The position numbers and the translations under genes were made by a program. From Actinomycetota bacterium (GTDB lineage: Bacteria > Actinomycetota > Actinomycetes > Streptosporangiales > Streptosporangiaceae), in assembly GCA_021324595.1 (NCBI GenBank), contig JAJPIV010000069.1:1-33089 (forward strand): a stretch of DNA of 33,089 nt. The letters are read 5' to 3'. Shown here piece after piece: positions 850-16,880 of this stretch; the stretch's first letter is position 1, and each line of letters starts with the position of its first letter. Under the pieces are notes generated by a model that saw only the letters and a list, made by a program, of their open reading frames with translations, was not told where the DNA came from and did no database searches.

Positions 850-3135
850 GTGGCAGATTGCTTACGATCCGTAGTCACATCGGGGGTTCACGTTCACGGG
901 GATGACGCCGCGCGCGCGGCCGGCTGGCCGCGGCGCGCGCTCGCGAGACGGCCGGCGCGCCGGCGGGGCCCGGCCGGACTGGGCCTGGCCGTCCTGGTCG
1001 CGGCGGTCGCGGCCGGCGGCTGCGCGGGGAGCCCGGCGCGGATCGGAGACGCCGCGCGGATGCCCGCCGCGCGCCCGGCTGGCCCGGGAGTGGTGCTGCG
1101 GGTGGGCTGGACCGGCTACCAGCTCCCGGAGGCCATCTGCGACGAGGCCGCGGTCGCCGTTGGCCCGGTGGTGCTGCTCGCGGGCGGCGAACTCGGACGG
1201 CATCGCCGGCCCACCGCGACGGTGCTGCGGCTCGACCCGGTCACCGGCCGCACCAGCGCCGCCGGCCACCTGGCCGGGCCGGTGACCGGCGCCGCCGCTG
1301 CCCTGCTGGGCGGCGTCCCGGTGGTGTACGGCGGCCGGTCGCGCCCCGGCCTCGCGCTGGCACAGGTGCCCGCCGCCCGGTCACCGGAGCGCGCCGGGCG
1401 CGCAGCGGCGCCGTTCACAGCGCGAGCGCGGGCGGCCGCTGCGGCGGCGATTGCCGCTCGCCTTGCCGACTCGCCCGGTCGCCTGCCGTCCGCCAGGTAC
1501 GGCCTGGCCGCGGTGACCCTGGGCGCCCGCACCTACCTGGTCGGCGGTCAGGACGCGGCCCGCATCCTGCCCGCGGTCCTCAGCACGGGCGACGGCAGGC
1601 ACTTCTCGGTGGCCGCCAGGCTGCCCGTCCCGGTGAGCGAGGCGGGGGTCGTGGCCGCCGGCGGCGCGCTCTGGGTCTTCGGCGGCATGACACCGCGCGG
1701 GCCGACCGATGTGATCCAGCGGGTGGACCCGCGGACCGGGCAGGCCCGGGTGGCAGGCAGGCTGCCCCGCCCGCTCGCCGCCGCGAGCGCGTTCCGCATC
1801 GGCGGGAGGATCTTCCTCGCGGGCGGGCTGACCAGCGCGACGGCAGGCACCAGGCGCGCGCCGGCCGCGGGCCGGACGACGGCGACCGGCGCGGTCCTCG
1901 GCTACGACCCGGCGAGCGGCGCGACGTCAGATGCGGGAACCCTGCCGATGCCGCTCGCGCACGCCGCCGTCGCCGTGGTGCGCGGGACCGCGTACCTGAT
2001 CGGCGGCACGGACGGCCGCGCGGCGGTCCCCGCCGTCGTCGCGGTGCGGATGGCCGGGACGACGGCGGCCCGGCCGGCGGGGACCGCCGGCGGAGCCGCC
2101 GGCCCGCCGGCCCCGCGGGCCGTCACGCCCGGCCCGCTGGCCCCGGCCGCGAGCGCCGCGCCCTGGCTGGCCCCGGCCCGCGGCCGGGGGCATCTCGCGC
2201 CGGGCTCGGACCCGTCCGCCCTTCCTGCCGACGTGCTCATCGCCGACCACCTGAACAACCGCCTGATCATCGTGGACCCCCGCGGCCGCATCCGCTGGGT
2301 GTTCCCGCGCAAGGGCGACCTGGCCGCGGGGCAGCGCTTCCGGGTCCCCGACGACGCGTTCTTCTCCCCCGACGGCCGGTACATCATCGCGACCCAGGAG
2401 GACGACCAGGTCATCTCGGTGATCGACGTGGCGGCCCACCGCATCGTCTACCAGTACGGCCGGCCCGGGACCCCGGGCAGCGGGCCCAACCGGGTGGACA
2501 ACCCCGACGACGCGATGCTCCTGCCCGGCGGCGACATCCTGGTCGCCGACATCAAGAACTGCCGGATCCTGCTGATCAGGCCGCCGGCGCACCGCCCGCG
2601 CCGGATCATCGGCCGCACCTCGAGCGCCTGCTGGCACGACCCGCCGCGCCGCTTCGGCAGCCCGAACGGCGCGTTCCCGATGAGCGACGGGCACGTCCTG
2701 GTGACCGAGATCAACGGGGACTGGGCGAGCGAGGTGACGCTGCGCGGCCGCGTGCTCTGGTCGGCGCACCCGCCGGGCGTCGCCTACCCGTCGGACACCA
2801 ACGAGGTCTACCCGGGCCGCTTCATCACCGCGGACTACTCCGATCCCGGCCAGGTGGTCGAGTTCAGCCAGCGCGGGCGGCTGCTCTGGCGGTTCGGCGG
2901 CCTGAACCGGCCCTCGCTGGCGGTCCCCATGCCCAACGGCGACATCCTGGTGAACGATGACTTCAACGACCGCGTGATCGTCATCGATCCGGCCACCGGC
3001 GCGATCGTCTGGCAGTACGGCCACACCGGCGTCCCGGGCCGGGCGCCCGGTTACCTGAACGACCCCGACGGCCTTGACCTCGTCCCGCCCGACTCACTGC
3101 TCATCAGGAACGCCCCCGCCCTCGGCGGCCCGTAG
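850..3135 (+). CDS. Predicted lipoprotein with two beta-propellers (Kelch-like plus NHL/PQQ-like)
   Basis: Probably a surface-anchored scaffold or binding protein; no enzymatic motif is recognised. With the GTG at 850 the protein has 761 residues. It has an Arg-rich n-region, a hydrophobic stretch and a Cys after VAAGG (about residue 58), which resembles a lipobox. Residues about 85-400 contain repeated GG-centred strands (LLAGGE, VYGGR, YLVGGQ, WVFGGM, FLAGGL, YLIGGT), typical of Kelch blades. A Pro/Ala-rich linker covers about 405-460. Residues about 465-750 hold a second propeller with repeats such as DVLIADHLNNRLIIVD, GDILVADIKNCRILLI and GDILVNDDFNDRVIVID, similar to NHL or PQQ-like repeats. 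The start is uncertain: the first codons include a TTA and a GTA, unusual here, and no other ATG, GTG or TTG is in frame before the signal sequence. It stops with TAG. Confidence 0.75.
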   Translation: MADCLRSVVTSGVHVHGDDAARAAGWPRRALARRPARRRGPAGLGLAVLVAAVAAGGCAGSPARIGDAARMPAARPAGPGVVLRVGWTGYQLPEAICDEAAVAVGPVVLLAGGELGRHRRPTATVLRLDPVTGRTSAAGHLAGPVTGAAAALLGGVPVVYGGRSRPGLALAQVPAARSPERAGRAAAPFTARARAAAAAAIAARLADSPGRLPSARYGLAAVTLGARTYLVGGQDAARILPAVLSTGDGRHFSVAARLPVPVSEAGVVAAGGALWVFGGMTPRGPTDVIQRVDPRTGQARVAGRLPRPLAAASAFRIGGRIFLAGGLTSATAGTRRAPAAGRTTATGAVLGYDPASGATSDAGTLPMPLAHAAVAVVRGTAYLIGGTDGRAAVPAVVAVRMAGTTAARPAGTAGGAAGPPAPRAVTPGPLAPAASAAPWLAPARGRGHLAPGSDPSALPADVLIADHLNNRLIIVDPRGRIRWVFPRKGDLAAGQRFRVPDDAFFSPDGRYIIATQEDDQVISVIDVAAHRIVYQYGRPGTPGSGPNRVDNPDDAMLLPGGDILVADIKNCRILLIRPPAHRPRRIIGRTSSACWHDPPRRFGSPNGAFPMSDGHVLVTEINGDWASEVTLRGRVLWSAHPPGVAYPSDTNEVYPGRFITADYSDPGQVVEFSQRGRLLWRFGGLNRPSLAVPMPNGDILVNDDFNDRVIVIDPATGAIVWQYGHTGVPGRAPGYLNDPDGLDLVPPDSLLIRNAPALGGP

Positions 3136-3247: not shown

Positions 3248-5773
3248 ATGACGCTTGCCGAGCTGGTACCCGACCCCGCCGATCCGGACTCCCTGTATGA
3301 GGCGTTCTCCGGCTGGGCCGCCGGCCAGGGACTGGCGCTCTACCCGCACCAGGACGAGGCGCTGATCGAGGTCGTCTGCGGCGCCAACGTGATCGTGTCC
3401 ACCCCCACCGGGTCGGGCAAGAGCCTGATCGCGACGGCGGCGCACTTCGCCGCGCTCGCCACCGGGCGCCGCAGTTACTACACCGCGCCGATCAAGGCCC
3501 TGGTCTCGGAGAAGTTCTTCGCGCTGTGCGAGGTGTTCGGGCCGCGCGCGGTCGGGATGATGACCGGGGACGGGAGCGTGAACGCCACGGCCCCGGTCAT
3601 CTGCTGCACCGCCGAGGTGCTCGCCAACATCGCGCTGCGCGACGGCGCCTGCGCCGACGCGGGCATGGTGATCATGGATGAGTTCCACTACTACGCCGAC
3701 CCGGAGCGGGGCTGGGCCTGGCAGGTGCCGCTGATCGAGCTCCCCCGCGCGCAGTTCGTGCTGATGTCGGCCACGCTCGGCGACGTCCGCCGGTTCGAGG
3801 CGGACCTGACCCGGCGGACCGGCCGGCCGACCGCGGTGATCCGCTCCGCGCAGCGCCCGGTGCCGCTGCTGTTCCGCTATGCCGGCACGCCGCTGCACGA
3901 GACCGTCGCCGAGCTGCTCCAGGCCGGCCAGGCGCCGGTCTACGTGGTCCACTTCACCCAGGCGGCGGCGGTCGAGCAGGCCCAGGCGCTGATGAGCGTC
4001 AACGTCTGCACCCGGGCGGAGAAGGACGAGATCGCGGCGATGATCGGCCGGTTCCGGTTCACCGCCGGGTTCGGCAAGACGCTCTCGCGGCTGGTCAGGC
4101 ACGGCATCGGGGTCCACCACGCCGGGATGCTCCCCCGCTACCGCCGCCTGGTCGAGACGCTCGCCCAGGCGGGCCTGCTCAAGGTAATCTGCGGCACCGA
4201 CACGCTGGGGGTGGGGATCAACGTGCCGATCCGCACGGTCCTGCTCACCGCGCTGTCCAAGTTCGACGGCAGCGTCACCCGGCTGCTCCAGGCCCGTGAG
4301 TTCCACCAGATCGCCGGCCGGGCGGGCCGGGCCGGCTTCGACCAGGCGGGCGCCGTCGTGGTGCAGGCGCCCGAGCATGTGATCGCGAACGAGCGGGCGC
4401 TGGCGAAGGCCGGCGATGACCCGGCCAGGCGCCGGAAGGTCGTGCGGAAGAAGCCGCCGCCCGGCTTCGTCTCATGGGGCCAGCCGACGTTCGAGCGGCT
4501 GGTCGCCGCCGAGCCGGAGCCGCTGAAGTCCAGCTTCAAGGTCAGCCACGCGATGCTGCTCAACGTGATCGCCCGGCCGGGTGACGCGTTCGGCGCGATG
4601 CGCCACCTGCTCACCGACAATCACGAGGAGCGGGCCGCCCAGCGCCGCCACATCCACCGCGCGATCGAGATCTACCGGGCGCTGCTGGCCGGCGGCGTGG
4701 TCGAGCGGCTCGGCGAGCCGGACGAGCTGGGCCGGCGGGTCCGCCTCACGGTGGACCTGCAGGAGGACTTCGCGCTGAACCAGCCGCTCTCCCCGCTCGC
4801 CCTCGCCGCGATCGGCCTGCTCGACAAGGCGGACCCGGGATACGCCCTCGACGTCCTGTCGGTGATCGAGTCGACGCTGGACGACCCGCGGCCGGTCCTC
4901 CTGGCCCAGCAGTCCAAGGCCCGCGGCGAGGCGGTCGAGCAGATGAAGGCCGAGGGCATCGACTACGAGACGCGCATCGAGCTGCTCGAGGAGATCACCC
5001 ACCCGCGTCCGCTCGCCGACCTGCTGGAGACGGCCTACGAGATCTACCGGCGCGGCCACCCGTGGGTCGCCGACTACGAGCTGTCACCCAAGTCGGTGGC
5101 CCGGGACATGTACGAGCAGGCGATGACGTTCACCGAGTACGTCGCCTGGCTCGGCCTGGCCCGGTCGGAGGGGCTGCTGCTGCGCTACCTCGCCGACGCC
5201 TACAAGGCGCTCCGCCAGACCGTGCCGGAGCAGTCCAGGACCGAGGAGCTGGCCGACCTGATCGAGTGGCTGGGCGAGCTGGTCAGGCAGGTCGATTCCA
5301 GCCTGCTCGATGAGTGGGAACGGCTCGTCCGCCCGGACGCGGCCGCGGCCGGGCCCGGCCCGGACGCGGCCGGCGGCCAGCCGGGCGAGGGGCCGCCCCC
5401 GGTGACCGCGAACGCGCGCGCCTTCCGGGTGCTCGTGCGCAACGCGCTCTTCCGCCGCGTGGAGCTGGCGGCGCTGCGCAAGTGGGAGGAGCTCGGCGCC
5501 CTGGACCGCGAGTCGGGCTGGGACGCCCGGGCCTGGGCCGAGGCCCTCGCGCCGTACTTCGCCCGGCACGGCGAGATCGGCACGGGCGCCGACGCCCGCG
5601 GCCCGGCCATGCTGATCATCGACGACGCGGACCCGGGCCGGTGGCAGGTGCGCCAGATCCTGGACGACCCCGCCGGCGACCACGACTGGGGGATCAGCGC
5701 GGAGGTCGACCTGGCCGGGTCGGACGCCGCCGGGGAGGCGGTGATCTGGGTCACCGGGGTCGGCTGCCTGTGA
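3248..5773 (+). CDS. DEAD/DEAH-box superfamily 2 helicase with DUF3516 C-terminal region
   Basis: ATP-dependent nucleic-acid helicase, probably acting on RNA in the cytoplasm. Visible motifs in the 841-residue protein: Walker A STPTGSGKS (51-59), DEFH box (144-147), SAT (174-176), motif V GTDTLGVGINVP (316-327) and motif VI QIAGRAGRAG (354-363). The motif VI form and the HHAGMLP segment (290-296) are typical of the Ski2/Mtr4/HelY group. The large remainder (about 390-841) matches the actinobacterial DUF3516 region, known only as a companion of such helicases. The length is normal for that group. The ATG follows a gagtgag Shine-Dalgarno-like stretch. The gene sits alone between two genes for exported proteins. 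Its exact substrate is not known from sequence. Confidence 0.92.
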   Translation: MTLAELVPDPADPDSLYEAFSGWAAGQGLALYPHQDEALIEVVCGANVIVSTPTGSGKSLIATAAHFAALATGRRSYYTAPIKALVSEKFFALCEVFGPRAVGMMTGDGSVNATAPVICCTAEVLANIALRDGACADAGMVIMDEFHYYADPERGWAWQVPLIELPRAQFVLMSATLGDVRRFEADLTRRTGRPTAVIRSAQRPVPLLFRYAGTPLHETVAELLQAGQAPVYVVHFTQAAAVEQAQALMSVNVCTRAEKDEIAAMIGRFRFTAGFGKTLSRLVRHGIGVHHAGMLPRYRRLVETLAQAGLLKVICGTDTLGVGINVPIRTVLLTALSKFDGSVTRLLQAREFHQIAGRAGRAGFDQAGAVVVQAPEHVIANERALAKAGDDPARRRKVVRKKPPPGFVSWGQPTFERLVAAEPEPLKSSFKVSHAMLLNVIARPGDAFGAMRHLLTDNHEERAAQRRHIHRAIEIYRALLAGGVVERLGEPDELGRRVRLTVDLQEDFALNQPLSPLALAAIGLLDKADPGYALDVLSVIESTLDDPRPVLLAQQSKARGEAVEQMKAEGIDYETRIELLEEITHPRPLADLLETAYEIYRRGHPWVADYELSPKSVARDMYEQAMTFTEYVAWLGLARSEGLLLRYLADAYKALRQTVPEQSRTEELADLIEWLGELVRQVDSSLLDEWERLVRPDAAAAGPGPDAAGGQPGEGPPPVTANARAFRVLVRNALFRRVELAALRKWEELGALDRESGWDARAWAEALAPYFARHGEIGTGADARGPAMLIIDDADPGRWQVRQILDDPAGDHDWGISAEVDLAGSDAAGEAVIWVTGVGCL

Positions 5774-5859
5774 CGGGACCCGAGCGCGGCGGCCGGCCAG
5801 GCGGCGCTCAGGCCCCAGGCGCCCGCGCGAGGCGCCGGGAAACCGTAAGGTAATGGGCC

Positions 5860-7947
5860 ATGCGCCATCGACTGCCAGGTTCTCGCCGACGGCTGGCCCG
5901 GCTGGGCGGCGCGTTCGCCGCGATCTGCGCGCTGGCCGCCGGCGCGGCCCTCATCGCCGGCTGGCGGGGCGCGTCGGGCCGGCCGGCCGTGATCCAGACG
6001 GTCACCACGGGAGGCACGCCGCAGCGGAACTCGATCATCGTCAACGGCGCGGCCCCCGGGCCGGTCTTCGACGGCGTGGGCGCGATCAGCGGCGGCGGCG
6101 GCAACAGCCGCCTGCTCATCGACTACCCGCCCAGGCAGCGCCAGCAGATCCTCGACTACCTGTTCAAGCCCCGCTACGGGGCAGCGCTGCAGATCCTGAA
6201 GGTCGAGATCGGCGGCGACGCGAACGCCACCGACGGCGCCGAGCCCTCCTACCAGCACGCCCCCGGGCAGCCCCCGAACTGCCGGGCCGGCTACGAGTTC
6301 TGGCTGGCCCGGCAGGCCCAGCGGCTCAACCCGCGCATCCAGGTCTACGCGCTGCAGTGGAACGCCCCGCACTGGGCCGGCGGCGCCCGCCAGGCCGCGT
6401 GGACCATCGCGGACGTGCGGAACGTGATCGGCTGGCTGGAGTGCGCCCGCCATGACGGGATCACGGTCAGCGAGGTCGGCGGCTGGAACGAGCACCTGCC
6501 GCACGGTCCCACGCCTGCCGTGCTCGGCTGGTTCGTCAGGCTCCGCCAGGCCCTGGACGCGCACGGCTTCTCGCGGGTCAAGATCATCGCACTCGACTCG
6601 TTCCCCCATGTCCATGGGCCGGACGTGGCGAAGTTCCTGGCCGGTGACGCGGCGTTCCGCCACGCCGTCGGCATCCTCGGCTATCACGACGTCTGCAAGC
6701 ACATGGCGCTCGCGCACCGGTGCCAGGTCCCCGCCGCGGCCCTGTCGTCGGGCAAGCCCATCTGGGTGACCGAGGTGGGGGCGCTGACCCCGCCGGGCGG
6801 GTACGCCGCGATGGCCAGGTCGATCAACAACGCCTACATCGAGGCCGGGGTGACCGGTACGGTCGAGTGGCCCATGCTCAGCTCGATGCCCGCCGACATG
6901 CCGGCGGAGGACCTGGGCCTGATCCGGGCCAGCCAGCCCTGGAGCGGCAGCTACCAGGTCGGGGAGCTGACCTGGGTGATCGCGCAGACCACCGAGTTCA
7001 CCGCCGCGGGCTGGCGGTACCCGCGCGGCGGCTCGGGGACGCTCGCGCGCGGCGGATCCTACGTCAGCTACGCGGCGCCCGGCCGCCGCGCGTGGACCGT
7101 GGTCGCCCAGACCAGCGACGCCCGGGCCGCCCAGGTGGTGACCGTCCACGTGGCGGGCGGGCTGCCCGCCACGGTGGTGCACGTGTGGAGCACCGACCTG
7201 CGGGCGCGCGGCAGGCGGGGCTGGTTCGTCTACCGGCGGACCATCCGCCCCTACCGCGGCATCTTCGGCTACCGGCTGCTGCCCGGGTACGTCTACACGT
7301 TCACCACCGCACCGGGCCCGCGGCGCCCGGGCGCCCGCCCGCCCAGGCCGGAGCCGATGCCGCTGCGCTACGCGGCCGTCCCCGACGCCGCGGGGATGCC
7401 GCGCGAGCTGGCGCCGATGGACGGCGCCTTCCAGTACCTGGGCACGTCGCGGACCGTCTTCGCGCAGACGGCGGCGGGCATGCCGGACTTCTGGCAGCCA
7501 CCAGGCCCGGGCCAGCCGGGCCGGTTCCCCTACGCGGTGCTCGGCGGGAGCACCTGGCGCGACTACACGGTGTCCGCGCAGGTCAGGTTCACCCGGCCGG
7601 GACAGCGCGCCGGCCTGATCGCCAGGTACGACCGCCCGTCGTTCCGGTGGCCGGCCGACCAGTTCAAGGCCTACGAGTTCGCGGTCTCCACCACCGGCGC
7701 CTGGCGGCTGCTGCGGAACCGGACCAGCGGCGCACCGGTCGTGCTCGCCCGGGGCCGCTCGCCCGCGCTGGGCGTGAGCCGCTGGCACACGCTGTCGCTG
7801 TCGGCGCACCACGCCACGCTGATCGCCCGCATCGACGGGCGCCCGGTCGCGCGGGTGCGCAGCGCCTCCTACCGCCAGGGCATCGCGGGCATCCTGACCG
7901 GCGGCTTCTACCAGGTCCTCTTCCGCCAGCTCCGGGTCAGCCCGTAG
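5860..7947 (+). CDS. Glycoside hydrolase family 59 (galactocerebrosidase-like) protein, copy 1
   Basis: Predicted retaining beta-galactosidase of the GH59 family, whose best-known member removes galactose from galactosylceramide. The 695-residue protein begins with an Arg-rich head and a hydrophobic segment (about 14-34), so it is exported or membrane-anchored. The catalytic barrel starts with FDGVGAISGGGGNSRLL, then ILDYLFKPRYGAALQILK and VEIGGDANATDGAEPS, strikingly like animal GALC. The acid/base is E211 in GGWNEHLPHG and the nucleophile is E305 in IWVTEVGAL. A beta-sandwich segment (about 330-480) and a C-terminal lectin-like domain (about 510-695) follow, and the total length is near that of human GALC. 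A second copy lies directly downstream. The natural substrate is unknown; a galactolipid or other beta-galactoside is possible. An AAGG sequence 9 nt before the ATG may be the ribosome site. It stops with TAG. Confidence 0.9.
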   Translation: MRHRLPGSRRRLARLGGAFAAICALAAGAALIAGWRGASGRPAVIQTVTTGGTPQRNSIIVNGAAPGPVFDGVGAISGGGGNSRLLIDYPPRQRQQILDYLFKPRYGAALQILKVEIGGDANATDGAEPSYQHAPGQPPNCRAGYEFWLARQAQRLNPRIQVYALQWNAPHWAGGARQAAWTIADVRNVIGWLECARHDGITVSEVGGWNEHLPHGPTPAVLGWFVRLRQALDAHGFSRVKIIALDSFPHVHGPDVAKFLAGDAAFRHAVGILGYHDVCKHMALAHRCQVPAAALSSGKPIWVTEVGALTPPGGYAAMARSINNAYIEAGVTGTVEWPMLSSMPADMPAEDLGLIRASQPWSGSYQVGELTWVIAQTTEFTAAGWRYPRGGSGTLARGGSYVSYAAPGRRAWTVVAQTSDARAAQVVTVHVAGGLPATVVHVWSTDLRARGRRGWFVYRRTIRPYRGIFGYRLLPGYVYTFTTAPGPRRPGARPPRPEPMPLRYAAVPDAAGMPRELAPMDGAFQYLGTSRTVFAQTAAGMPDFWQPPGPGQPGRFPYAVLGGSTWRDYTVSAQVRFTRPGQRAGLIARYDRPSFRWPADQFKAYEFAVSTTGAWRLLRNRTSGAPVVLARGRSPALGVSRWHTLSLSAHHATLIARIDGRPVARVRSASYRQGIAGILTGGFYQVLFRQLRVSP

Positions 7948-8113
7948 CGCGCCGCGGCCCGGCGATCTGCGCCATCGCTCACCGATGATGATCACGTTTG
8001 CGCTAATATCGCCGAATCGATTGCCCGGCCCCCCATGACGGGCTACAGTTTCCCGGCGCCGGTACCCGGGCACGGCCGCGAGGGCCTCCGGTCGGGCAAG
8101 GGAGTTCAGGCTG
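7948..8113 (+). promoter_or_regulatory. Intergenic promoter region of GH59 copy 2
   Basis: This 166-bp gap contains one of the few AT-richer stretches in the window (about 7981-8026). A good sigma-70-type match is present: TTGCCC at 8021-8026, a 17-bp spacer, and TACAGT at 8044-8049. Transcription would start near 8056, giving a leader of about 58 nt. A ggag sequence 9 nt before the ATG at 8114 is a likely ribosome site. The second GH59 gene can therefore probably be transcribed on its own. The AT-rich stretch upstream may hold a regulator site, but I see no clear palindrome. Confidence 0.5.
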
Positions 8114-10207
8114 ATGGGGAGCAGAGTCGCTCGTCCCGGTCCAGGCGCGGCCGGGATCAGGATCAGCCGCGGCCGCGCCATCGACCGGAGTCAGGGCCGG
8201 GCGTACCTGATCTACGGCGTGCTCGTCGTGCTCGTCGCCGGCGCGGTGGTGTTCGCGAGGAACGCGCTCGCCCAGCCGCACCGCACCAGCATCACGCTCG
8301 ACGGGGCACGGCTCGGGCCGGCGTTCCAGGGGGTCGGCGCGATCAGCGGCGGCGGCGGCAACAGCAGGCTGCTGATCGACTACGAGGCACGGCACGAGCG
8401 GCAGGCGCAGCAGATCCTGGACTACCTGTTCAAGCCCGGCTACGGGGCGGCGCTGCAGATCCTCAAGCTGGAGATCGGCGGCGAGGCTTACGCCACCGAC
8501 GGCGCCGAGCCGTCGATCGAGCACACCAAGGGCGCGATCAACTGCGACGCGGGGTACGAATTCTGGATCGCCGAGCAGGCCCGCAAGCTCAATCCGCGCA
8601 TCCAGATCTACGGGCTGCAGTGGAACGCGCCGCACTGGGTCGGCGGCGCGTGGAGCAAGGCGGACATCGGCTACCTTCTCGACTGGCTGAACTGCGCGAA
8701 GCAGGACGGCCTGGCGGTCAACTACCTCGGCGGCTGGAACGAGCACCTGCCCCACGGCATCACCCCTCAGGTCATGGGGTGGTTCATCAGCCTGCGCCGG
8801 GCGCTGGACGCGCACGGTTACCGGAACGTGCAGATCGTCGCGGTGGACTCGTTCGCCCATGAGAACGGGACTGACGTGGCGAACTTCCTCGCGCGCCACC
8901 CGGCGTTCCGGCGCGCGATCGGCGTCCTCGGCTACCACAACCTGTGCCGGTACCCGGCGACGGGCCGGACCTGCCTGATCCCGCGCGCCGCGCGGGCCTC
9001 GGGCAAGCCGATCTGGGAGTCCGAGATCGGCGCCCTGCGCCAGCACACCGGCGTGGCGGCGATGACCCGATCGATCATCAACGCGTTCATCCAGGTCGGG
9101 GCGACCGGCATGATCGAGTGGCCGCTGCTGGACTCGATGCCGGCGAACCTGCCGGAGGAGGACCGGGGCCTGGTCTTCGCCGACCAGCCGTGGAGCGGGC
9201 AGTACCACGTGAACCTGATGACCTGGGTGATCGCCCAGACCACCCAGTTCACCGAGCCCGGGTGGCATCACATCGGCGGGGGCAGCGGCAAGCTCGGCGG
9301 CCCGTGGGGCTCCTACACCAGCTACGAGCCCGCCGACCACTCGGCCTGGAGCCTGGTCGTCCAGACCACCGACGCCCCGGCGGCCCAGACGATCGCCGTG
9401 CACGTCGATACCGGGCTGCCCAGGTCGGCCGTGCACGTGTGGGCGACGAACGTGAGGTCCAAGAACCCTGCGGCCTGGTTCAGGCCGCAGCCGGGCATCC
9501 GCCCGTCCGGCGGCCGCTTCACCTACCGGCTCCGGCCCGGCTACCTGTACACGTTCACGACGACCACCGGGCAGGGCAAGGGCCGCGGGGTGAGCCCCGC
9601 GGCCGTGCCGATGGCGCTGCCGTACGTCGCGGTCCCCGACGCCTCGGGCGAGCCGGCGCTGCTCGGCCCGCAGGACGGCGCGTTCGAGTACCCCCGGGGC
9701 GCCGCGGCCAAGCCCGGCGACTACTTCGAGCAGACCGCGGTCGGGTTGCCGGTCTTCTGGCAGAATCCGGTCGCCTCGCGGTTCCCCTACGCGGTGGTCG
9801 GCGACCAGGGCTGGCGGAACTACACCGTGTCGGCCTCGGTCAGCTTCACAGCGCCCGGCCAGAGCGCCGGGCTGATCAGCCGGTTCCGCCACCTGAAGGC
9901 CAACGGGGTCGCGCAGCAGTTCCACGGGTACCAGTTCGTGGTCTGGCAGGACGGCCGGTGGAGCCTGATCAGGAACACGATCCGCGCGCGGCCGGCCGTG
10001 CTGGACTCGGGCACGCTCGGGCACGCGCTGCCGGTCGGAACGTGGATCCGGCTCTCGCTCACCGCATCCGGAAGCCGGCTGACCGCCAGCGTCAACGGCG
10101 CGGTGGTCGCGAGGGCCACCGACACGCGGTACTCCGGCGGGGACGCCGGGATCAGCACGGGCGGCTGGTACCACGTCAAGTTCCGCGACCTGACCGTCAC
10201 CCGCTGA
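8114..10207 (+). CDS. Glycoside hydrolase family 59 (galactocerebrosidase-like) protein, copy 2
   Basis: Paralogue of the preceding gene, 697 residues, aligning over almost the whole length. A single transmembrane segment (about 31-48, YLIYGVLVVLVAGAVVF) follows a basic head, predicting an anchored protein with its catalytic part outside. Family signatures: VGAISGGGGNSRLLIDY, ILDYLFKPGYGAALQILK and LEIGGEAYATDGAEPS. The acid/base E210 lies in GGWNEHLPHG and the nucleophile E304 in IWESEIGAL. The C-terminal third has the lectin-like GH59 fold (DGAFEY to the end). Compared with copy 1, the N-terminal anchor, linker and surface loops differ most, while the active-site segments are nearly the same. 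This suggests an old duplication with possible change of specificity. The gene ends facing dapB, only 71 bp away. Confidence 0.9.
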   Translation: MGSRVARPGPGAAGIRISRGRAIDRSQGRAYLIYGVLVVLVAGAVVFARNALAQPHRTSITLDGARLGPAFQGVGAISGGGGNSRLLIDYEARHERQAQQILDYLFKPGYGAALQILKLEIGGEAYATDGAEPSIEHTKGAINCDAGYEFWIAEQARKLNPRIQIYGLQWNAPHWVGGAWSKADIGYLLDWLNCAKQDGLAVNYLGGWNEHLPHGITPQVMGWFISLRRALDAHGYRNVQIVAVDSFAHENGTDVANFLARHPAFRRAIGVLGYHNLCRYPATGRTCLIPRAARASGKPIWESEIGALRQHTGVAAMTRSIINAFIQVGATGMIEWPLLDSMPANLPEEDRGLVFADQPWSGQYHVNLMTWVIAQTTQFTEPGWHHIGGGSGKLGGPWGSYTSYEPADHSAWSLVVQTTDAPAAQTIAVHVDTGLPRSAVHVWATNVRSKNPAAWFRPQPGIRPSGGRFTYRLRPGYLYTFTTTTGQGKGRGVSPAAVPMALPYVAVPDASGEPALLGPQDGAFEYPRGAAAKPGDYFEQTAVGLPVFWQNPVASRFPYAVVGDQGWRNYTVSASVSFTAPGQSAGLISRFRHLKANGVAQQFHGYQFVVWQDGRWSLIRNTIRARPAVLDSGTLGHALPVGTWIRLSLTASGSRLTASVNGAVVARATDTRYSGGDAGISTGGWYHVKFRDLTVTR

Positions 10208-10278: not shown

Positions 10279-12361
<2,083 letters not shown>

Positions 12362-15536: not shown

Positions 15537-16880
15537 TCAGGGCAGGCCGGTCAGCGCCCGGGCGTAGATCTGGGACAGCGCGTGCCTGCCGCCGAGCGCG
15601 CTGCCCCAGCTCACCGCGAGGCCCGGCGCGCCGGGACCGGGGGGCGGGCTCACCGCCAGGCCGATCGTGTCCCCCGGCCACACGTGCCTGTTCCCGTAGC
15701 TGGGCGACACCCGGATCACCGAGGTCAGCCAGCCCCGCCGGGCCGAGAACACCCGCAGGTACTGCACGTACCCGCGGGCCGGGGCATCGGTCAGCCAGCC
15801 CACGTAGGCGATCCCCGGTCCGCCCCCGGCCACCTGGGTCAGGTGGACCGCCTGGTCGTTGTCGGGGGTGACCCGCACCGGCCGCGACCAGATCCGGCCG
15901 CCCGTGGTGGAGTAGGCCAGCCAGCCGATGTCGCGGCCGCCGCTCTGGCTGTCCCAGGTCGCGTAGAGGTGGCCCGCCGAGTCGATGCCGAGCGACCCGT
16001 CGATCCACCATTCGGCGGTGCTCATCCACAGGCGGGCCCCGCCCACCCGCTGCGGCCGGGACCACTTCAGGCCGTTGTCGGTGGAGGTCGTGAAGTAGTT
16101 GTGGGCGACGCCGAGCGCGAGAGTGGCCCGGTTGAGCACCTGGTATCCCTGGTACAGCACGTCGAGGCGGCCACCGGGCGCGACCACGATCGGCGCGCTG
16201 TCCGCGCCGCTCGCCGGGAAGCCCGGGCTGATCGGGATGATCGGGCTCCAGGTCCGGCCGCCGTCCTTGGACCGCTGGATGACCACGTTGACATCCCCGG
16301 CGCTGAACGAGCAGCTCCCGCTGGCGGAGCAGACGAACCTGATGTCGTCCTTCGGGCCGTAGTCCCAGGTCACGAAGATCGTGCCGAACCGGTTCACCGC
16401 GATGAAGTCCCGGTCGCCCCAGTTGCCCGCGCGCGGGGAGCCCAGCCTGCTGACCTGCCACCGGCCGCCCCGCAGGATGTCCACCACCGGGTAGATCCGA
16501 CGGCTCCGGGCGACCATGAACGCCGCGTAGACCGCGCCGCCCGGGCCGACCGCGATCGCCGGGTCCCAGGCGTGCCCCGATCCGGGCAGCTCGGCGGGCG
16601 GGCCGAAGCTCGCCCCGCCGTCGGAGGAGGCGGCGAAGCCGATGCCGCCGCAGCCCATCCACACGTCGTAGACCGCGTGCGCGGGGGCATAGGCCGCCGA
16701 CTCGACCTCGGCGCTCCCGCCCGGGCAGGCGCCGCTCACGTCGGCGACCGGGCCGCTGGCGGCGGGCGGGACGCCGGCCGCGGCGCGGGCGGCCCTTGCG
16801 CCGGCGACGCCGGGGCCCGCGGCCAGCACGACCGCCAGGAAACCGGTGAGCACGCGCCCGGTCCGCGCCAGGTGCCGCAC
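15537..16880 (-). CDS. Secreted sialidase-like six-bladed beta-propeller protein (Asp-box repeats)
   Basis: Exported protein of the sialidase/BNR-repeat superfamily. The 447-residue product starts with a signal peptide (basic MRHLARTGR, hydrophobic core, Ala-rich cleavage region ending near residue 34). Four Asp-box repeats mark the propeller blades: SSDGGASFG (85-93), SKDGGRTWS (204-212), STDNGLKWS (266-274) and the variant STTGGRIWS (324-332). I could not assign the Arg triad and Tyr/Glu pair of true sialidases with confidence, so it may bind or cleave another glycan, or be catalytically inactive. The GTG start is supported by an AAGGAG site 5 nt upstream. The gene sits between ribF and rpsO in a conserved core cluster, where such a gene is not expected. 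Confidence 0.8.
   Translation of the reverse strand: MRHLARTGRVLTGFLAVVLAAGPGVAGARAARAAAGVPPAASGPVADVSGACPGGSAEVESAAYAPAHAVYDVWMGCGGIGFAASSDGGASFGPPAELPGSGHAWDPAIAVGPGGAVYAAFMVARSRRIYPVVDILRGGRWQVSRLGSPRAGNWGDRDFIAVNRFGTIFVTWDYGPKDDIRFVCSASGSCSFSAGDVNVVIQRSKDGGRTWSPIIPISPGFPASGADSAPIVVAPGGRLDVLYQGYQVLNRATLALGVAHNYFTTSTDNGLKWSRPQRVGGARLWMSTAEWWIDGSLGIDSAGHLYATWDSQSGGRDIGWLAYSTTGGRIWSRPVRVTPDNDQAVHLTQVAGGGPGIAYVGWLTDAPARGYVQYLRVFSARRGWLTSVIRVSPSYGNRHVWPGDTIGLAVSPPPGPGAPGLAVSWGSALGGRHALSQIYARALTGLP

What the first reader, a model, noticed from the sequence alone, without database searches (positions are those of the whole stretch)
5860..10207. Tandem pair of GH59 galactocerebrosidase-like enzymes with intact active sites
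Two adjacent paralogues keep both catalytic glutamates (E211/E305 and E210/E304) and long stretches almost identical to animal GALC, for example GAISGGGGNSRLL and ILDYLFKP. GH59 is best known from animals; bacterial members are much less studied. Both copies have an N-terminal membrane anchor or signal, and their non-catalytic parts have diverged, suggesting two substrates. Bacterial galactolipids or plant/fungal galactosides are possible targets.
Basis: partly seen in the sequence, partly recalled or inferred. Interest (0 to 1): 0.65.

Follow-up and report, generated by a model that had tools for sequence, protein, structure and literature searches.

The report
Tandem bacterial GH59 galactosidase gene pair
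Two neighbouring genes in an actinobacterium encode real, probably exported relatives of the animal enzyme missing in Krabbe disease (GALC); they belong to a genus-specific tandem array and more likely trim sugars from plant or microbial glycans than from galactolipids.

Summary
Confirmed: window 5860-7947 (A) and 8114-10207 (B) are two intact, 55%-identical GH59 genes. Full-length sequence matches are to mouse GALC; both catalytic glutamates and the core galactose-site residues are kept. GH30 is excluded by sequence.

The lipid reading is weak. All 35 actinobacterial GH59 sequences examined, these two included, lack the GALC loop carrying Arg380, which moves when substrate binds. Mostly ricin-lectin-bearing GH59 relatives sit beside GH54 arabinofuranosidase genes in 12 of 23 loci (six genera), which points to plant cell-wall glycans. 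The window's own genus lacks GH54 and GH127, and mostly galactokinase, so its exact substrate is open.

New here: the pair belongs to a genus-specific GH59 subclade with no ricin lectin and a six-residue insertion right after the acid/base glutamate. It occupies one core-genome slot (DUF3516 helicase | dapB). One congener has no GH59 there; another has six plus a beta-helix protein. A and B are not a recent duplication: each pairs with a different member of that six-gene array (AU p 8e-14 against A+B), so the ancestor had at least five copies. GH59 in actinobacteria is itself ordinary.

The parts
5860..7947 (+). GH59 gene A (695 aa): N-terminal hydrophobic segment, catalytic TIM barrel (res. 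70-378), beta-sandwich, C-terminal GALC-type lectin domain; no ricin domain
8114..10207 (+). GH59 gene B (697 aa): same architecture, 55% identical to A
6490..6492 (+). A Glu211, acid/base (mouse GALC E182)
6772..6774 (+). A Glu305, nucleophile (mouse GALC E258)
8741..8743 (+). B Glu210, acid/base (mouse GALC E182)
9023..9025 (+). B Glu304, nucleophile (mouse GALC E258)
6496..6513 (+). A: six-residue insertion (LPHGPT) directly after WNEH; absent in GALC and lectin-bearing actinobacterial GH59
8747..8764 (+). B: six-residue insertion (LPHGIT), same place
3248..5773 (+). left flank of the array slot: DEAD-box/DUF3516 helicase, syntenic in congeners
10279..11037 (-). right flank of the array slot: dapB, syntenic in congeners (then M16 peptidase, PNPase)

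Best explanation
A and B are exported, probably cell-surface or secreted, retaining exo-beta-galactosidases of family GH59. As in GALC, the galactosyl pocket at subsite -1 uses Thr, Trp, Asn, an acid/base Glu and a nucleophile Glu for double-displacement hydrolysis (inferred from homology). The leaving-group side is rebuilt: the GALC loop carrying Arg380 is missing and an extra loop follows the acid/base. They therefore most likely release terminal beta-galactosyl (or the isosteric alpha-L-arabinopyranosyl) residues from soluble or wall-bound plant or microbial glycans, not from galactosylceramide. They are the two members kept by this species of a multicopy GH59 array in one chromosomal slot. 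Shown: family, active-site conservation, loop differences, array, phylogeny. Inferred: activity, sugar, substrate, location.
For: GH59 by Pfam and by PDB sequence. T93, W135, N181, E182, E258 and W291 equivalents are kept in both; residue roles from PMC12429000 and PMC5764952. The Arg380 loop is absent and the acid/base insertion present. In relatives of several genera GH59 sits within about 10 kb of GH54 in 12 of 23 loci, with GH127 in 2 and a GH141-like beta-helix protein in 7. GH54-positive genomes checked have 2-7 copies in 7-11 Mb, so chance adjacency is about 1% per locus. Array: empty slot in G276, six GH59 in G298. Hydrophobic N-termini.
Against: No activity data. The context evidence comes from other, mostly lectin-bearing branches. 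The window's genus lacks GH54 and GH127, and 4 of 5 genomes show no galactokinase signal, so use of released galactose as food is doubtful. The window genes have housekeeping neighbours, so there is no local substrate clue.
Confidence: 0.6

Rival explanations
1. They are bacterial galactolipid hydrolases (galactosylceramide, MGDG or bacterial glycolipids), i.e. functionally like GALC.
For: Full-length GALC architecture including the lectin domain; identical core of the galactose site; GALC pocket has no defined +1 sugar subsite (PMC6637243).
Against: The GALC loop with Arg380, which moves when substrate binds (PMC5764952), is absent in all 35 actinobacterial sequences. GALC needs saposin A for lipid, an animal partner. 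No alkaline ceramidase found in the genome, though that search had no positive control. Relatives sit with arabinofuranosidases.
Confidence: 0.15
2. They act on the organism's own or a neighbour's envelope glycans or on a secreted metabolite (remodelling or defence), not on food; the array diversifies under such pressure.
For: Multicopy, fast-diverging array in one slot with copy number 0, 2, 6 between congeners; galactokinase not detected in 4 of 5 genomes of the genus; no polysaccharide-utilisation neighbours; G276's single GH59 lies beside an NRPS-type gene cluster.
Against: No direct evidence for any envelope target; galactokinase absence rests on one short domain model; diversity could equally reflect varied plant oligosaccharides.
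Confidence: 0.2
3. The sequences belong to another clan GH-A family such as GH30 and only resemble GH59.
For: The poor AlphaFold model of B also matches GH30 structures, as expected within one clan.
Against: PF02057 at about 280 bits against a cut-off of 27, with no GH30 model hit; sequence search of the PDB returns GALC only; Foldseek ranks GALC first, about 20 orders of magnitude better than GH30.
Confidence: 0.01

Closest known systems
Mammalian galactocerebrosidase GALC (GH59; PDB 3zr5, 4ccc, 5nxb)
   Same: TIM barrel, beta-sandwich and C-terminal lectin domain; catalytic Glu pair; Thr93, Trp135, Asn181, Trp291 equivalents; 39-40% identity in the barrel
   Different: No Arg380 loop, Ser261 is Gly, six-residue insertion after the acid/base, 21-31% identity in the sandwich and 21% in the lectin domain, N-terminal hydrophobic segment, no saposin
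Actinobacterial GH59 with C-terminal ricin-B (CBM13) domain (e.g. L005, L008, L054)
   Same: GH59 core, no Arg380 loop; about 51% identity in the barrel (B against L005)
   Different: Those carry a ricin lectin domain, score about 390 against 283 bits, lack the acid/base insertion and often lie beside GH54/GH127/GH141-like genes; the window clade has none of these
GH59 array of the congener G298 (JOPF361, L003/L047/L048)
   Same: Same slot, same insertion, orthologues of A (57%) and of B (70%)
   Different: Six GH59 genes with a YccF-like gene and a beta-helix protein between them

Membership tests
GH59 | Match to the catalytic-domain model PF02057 above its curated cut-off | tested here: met
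   280 bits each against 27
GH59 | Acid/base and nucleophile glutamates at GALC E182 and E258 | tested here: met
   A E211/E305, B E210/E304
GH59 | GALC-type C-terminal lectin domain (PF21708) | tested here: met
   B 41.9 bits, above the cut-off of 27; A 25.3 bits, just below, but alignable with B over the whole domain
GH59 | GALC fold in three dimensions | tested here: inconclusive
   models too poor (pLDDT 53 and 47, only 5 sequences); B's best Foldseek hit is still 3zr5, E 1.7e-35, but TM only 0.31
GH59 | beta-galactosidase or galactosylceramidase activity | not testable with these tools
   needs purified protein
Galactocerebrosidase (GALC function) | Arg380 in the beta-sandwich loop at the leaving-group side | tested here: not met
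   loop absent in all 35 bacterial sequences
Galactocerebrosidase (GALC function) | Saposin A-assisted lipid presentation | not tested
   animal partner; not searched for here
GH30 | GH30 catalytic model match | tested here: not met
   no GH30 Pfam family in the scan

The most novel reading that the evidence does not exclude
A genus of Streptosporangiaceae-type actinobacteria has turned a GALC-type enzyme into a fast-diversifying tandem array at one core-genome slot, with a reshaped acid/base loop giving the paralogues different glycan or envelope targets unrelated to galactolipids: a GH59 subfamily with new specificities.
Probability: 0.3. Interest if true: 0.6.

Novelty: new variant of a known kind. 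Interest (0 to 1): 0.37.

Why it matters
GH59 is known almost entirely from GALC and Krabbe disease. A bacterial subclade that keeps the galactose pocket but lacks the Arg380 loop offers a natural contrast for asking which parts of GALC serve the lipid. The neighbourhood survey of relatives (GH54, GH127 and GH141-like partners) gives a concrete, testable substrate class for bacterial 'galactocerebrosidases', which a Streptomyces genome survey files under animal glycan/proteoglycan (PMC11475409).

Tried and rejected
Antisense ORFs over the region (5200-8181 -, 8003-10174 -) were rejected: not selected as genes by codon-position G+C. A recent A/B duplication was rejected: AU p 8e-14. Synteny-based orthology of A with the first GH59 on G298 contig C496 was rejected: AU p 3e-4. 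AlphaFold models were too poor to use for the active site. dN/dS by Nei-Gojobori (0.4-0.7) was not interpreted because GC3 is 0.86-0.97 and synonymous sites are biased. The beta-helix protein in the G298 array is not a relative of the GH141-like proteins. The plasmid collection gave one distant Kitasatospora relative. NCBIfam named neither protein. No paper describing a characterised bacterial GH59 was found in the open library; absence there is not proof. One search call failed on coordinates and one script failed on a file name; the useful parts were redone.

Full report
Check of the observation. Window 5860-7947 and 8114-10207 (+) hold two open frames of 695 and 697 residues. They show the codon-position G+C of genuine genes, and the long antisense frames were not selected. 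Both match PF02057 at E about 1e-83 and, just below (A) or above (B) its cut-off, the GALC lectin domain PF21708. The only PDB sequence matches are mouse GALC, over nearly the whole length. The two proteins are 55% identical. They are the only GH59 genes found in the genome.

Active site. Mouse GALC was aligned with 35 bacterial proteins. E182 and E258 of mouse fall on E211/E305 (A) and E210/E304 (B). Thr93, Trp135, Asn181 and Trp291 are kept as well. The substrate and catalytic residues of human GALC are Thr109, Trp151, Asn197, Arg396, Glu198 and Glu274 (PMC12429000), i.e. mouse numbering plus 16; Trp291 comes from memory of the GALC structure. Two differences lie on the leaving-group side. 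First, the loop bearing Arg380, which with E182 moves when substrate binds (PMC5764952), is missing in every bacterial sequence, and Ser261 is Gly in all but one. Second, A, B and five of the six G298 array members carry six or seven extra residues (LPHGxT-like) directly after the acid/base WNEH; the sixth member has a shorter, different insertion, and GALC and the lectin-bearing bacterial enzymes have none. The distance of this loop to the substrate cannot be measured here because the AlphaFold models are poor.

Distribution. In a sample of the same order, 39 of 297 genomes carry a near-full-length GH59 (my count of rows with E below 1e-70), most with a higher score than the window's. In a phylum-wide sample 4 of 396 do, the window's own genome included. 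So GH59 in actinobacteria is an established, patchy trait. Four of the five relatives scanned from outside the window's genus add a C-terminal ricin-B lectin; the window clade does not.

The array. The backbone kelch protein - DUF3516 helicase - dapB - M16 - PNPase is conserved. In G276 dapB and the helicase are about 0.55 kb apart with only a small YccF-like frame between them and no GH59 (YccF is my reading of the sequence, not a database match). In G298, contig C409 runs helicase - four GH59 - end, and contig C496 starts with an exact 197-base overlap of C409's end, then a beta-helix protein, two GH59 and dapB. The slot thus holds 0, 2 or 6 GH59 genes in three species. The tree groups B with the dapB-adjacent G298 gene and A with the third gene of C409, each with strong support. 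A tree joining A and B is rejected (AU p 8e-14), and so is A with the first GH59 of C496 (p 3e-4). Reconciling the branches gives at least five copies before the species split, with at least three lost in the window's lineage (inference from tree shape; horizontal exchange is an alternative). The window genome is 97% complete.

Function. Around 23 GH59 loci in related genomes outside the window's genus, a GH54 alpha-L-arabinofuranosidase lies within about 10 kb in 12 (six genera), a GH141-like beta-helix protein in 7, and GH127 in 2. GH54-positive genomes checked carry 2-7 GH54 copies in 7-11 Mb, so chance proximity is about 1% per locus; relatedness inflates the count but not the six-genus spread. 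This makes plant cell-wall arabinose/galactose glycans the likely setting for actinobacterial GH59. The window's genus is different: no GH54, no GH127, no galactokinase signal in four of five genomes, and the only carbohydrate-type companion seen is a beta-helix protein in G298 that is unrelated to the GH141-like ones. I therefore commit to exported retaining beta-galactosidases on glycans at 0.6, with an envelope or competition role at 0.2 and lipids at 0.15.

The family call and the residues are right. 'Diverged non-catalytic parts suggest two substrates' does not follow, since orthologues diverge in the same way. Lipid targets are disfavoured. GH30 is refuted.

Noticed in passing
L077, L079, L080, L081, L083, L085, L089, L090, L092, L094, L097, L098: Actinobacterial GH59 genes of other genera, mostly with a ricin lectin domain, co-locate with GH54 arabinofuranosidases (12 of 23 loci, six genera), suggesting a plant-glycan gene cluster for 'galactocerebrosidases'.
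   Followed up: partly
L049:475-11877 (G276 contig C105): The lone divergent GH59 of a congener (N181 equivalent is Asp) lies between a thioesterase/KASIII/haem-oxygenase-like group and an NRPS (C-A-PCP-TE) gene.
   Followed up: partly
L003:297-1484: Right-handed beta-helix protein inside the G298 GH59 array; relatives in G298 C47 and G289, and a broken copy in G276.
   Followed up: partly
genomes G000, G272, G276, G298: No galactokinase (PF10509) signal in four of five genomes of the genus although it rings in G297 and in outside relatives.
   Followed up: partly
window 15540-16880 (-): BNR-repeat protein (PF13088) set among translation/RNA housekeeping genes (PNPase, ribF, truB, IF-2, nusA, rimP).
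   Followed up: no
window 850-3135 (+): Kelch/PQQ-like repeat protein next to the AMP-binding enzyme and DUF3516 helicase; syntenic in G276 (partly matched) and G218.
   Followed up: no
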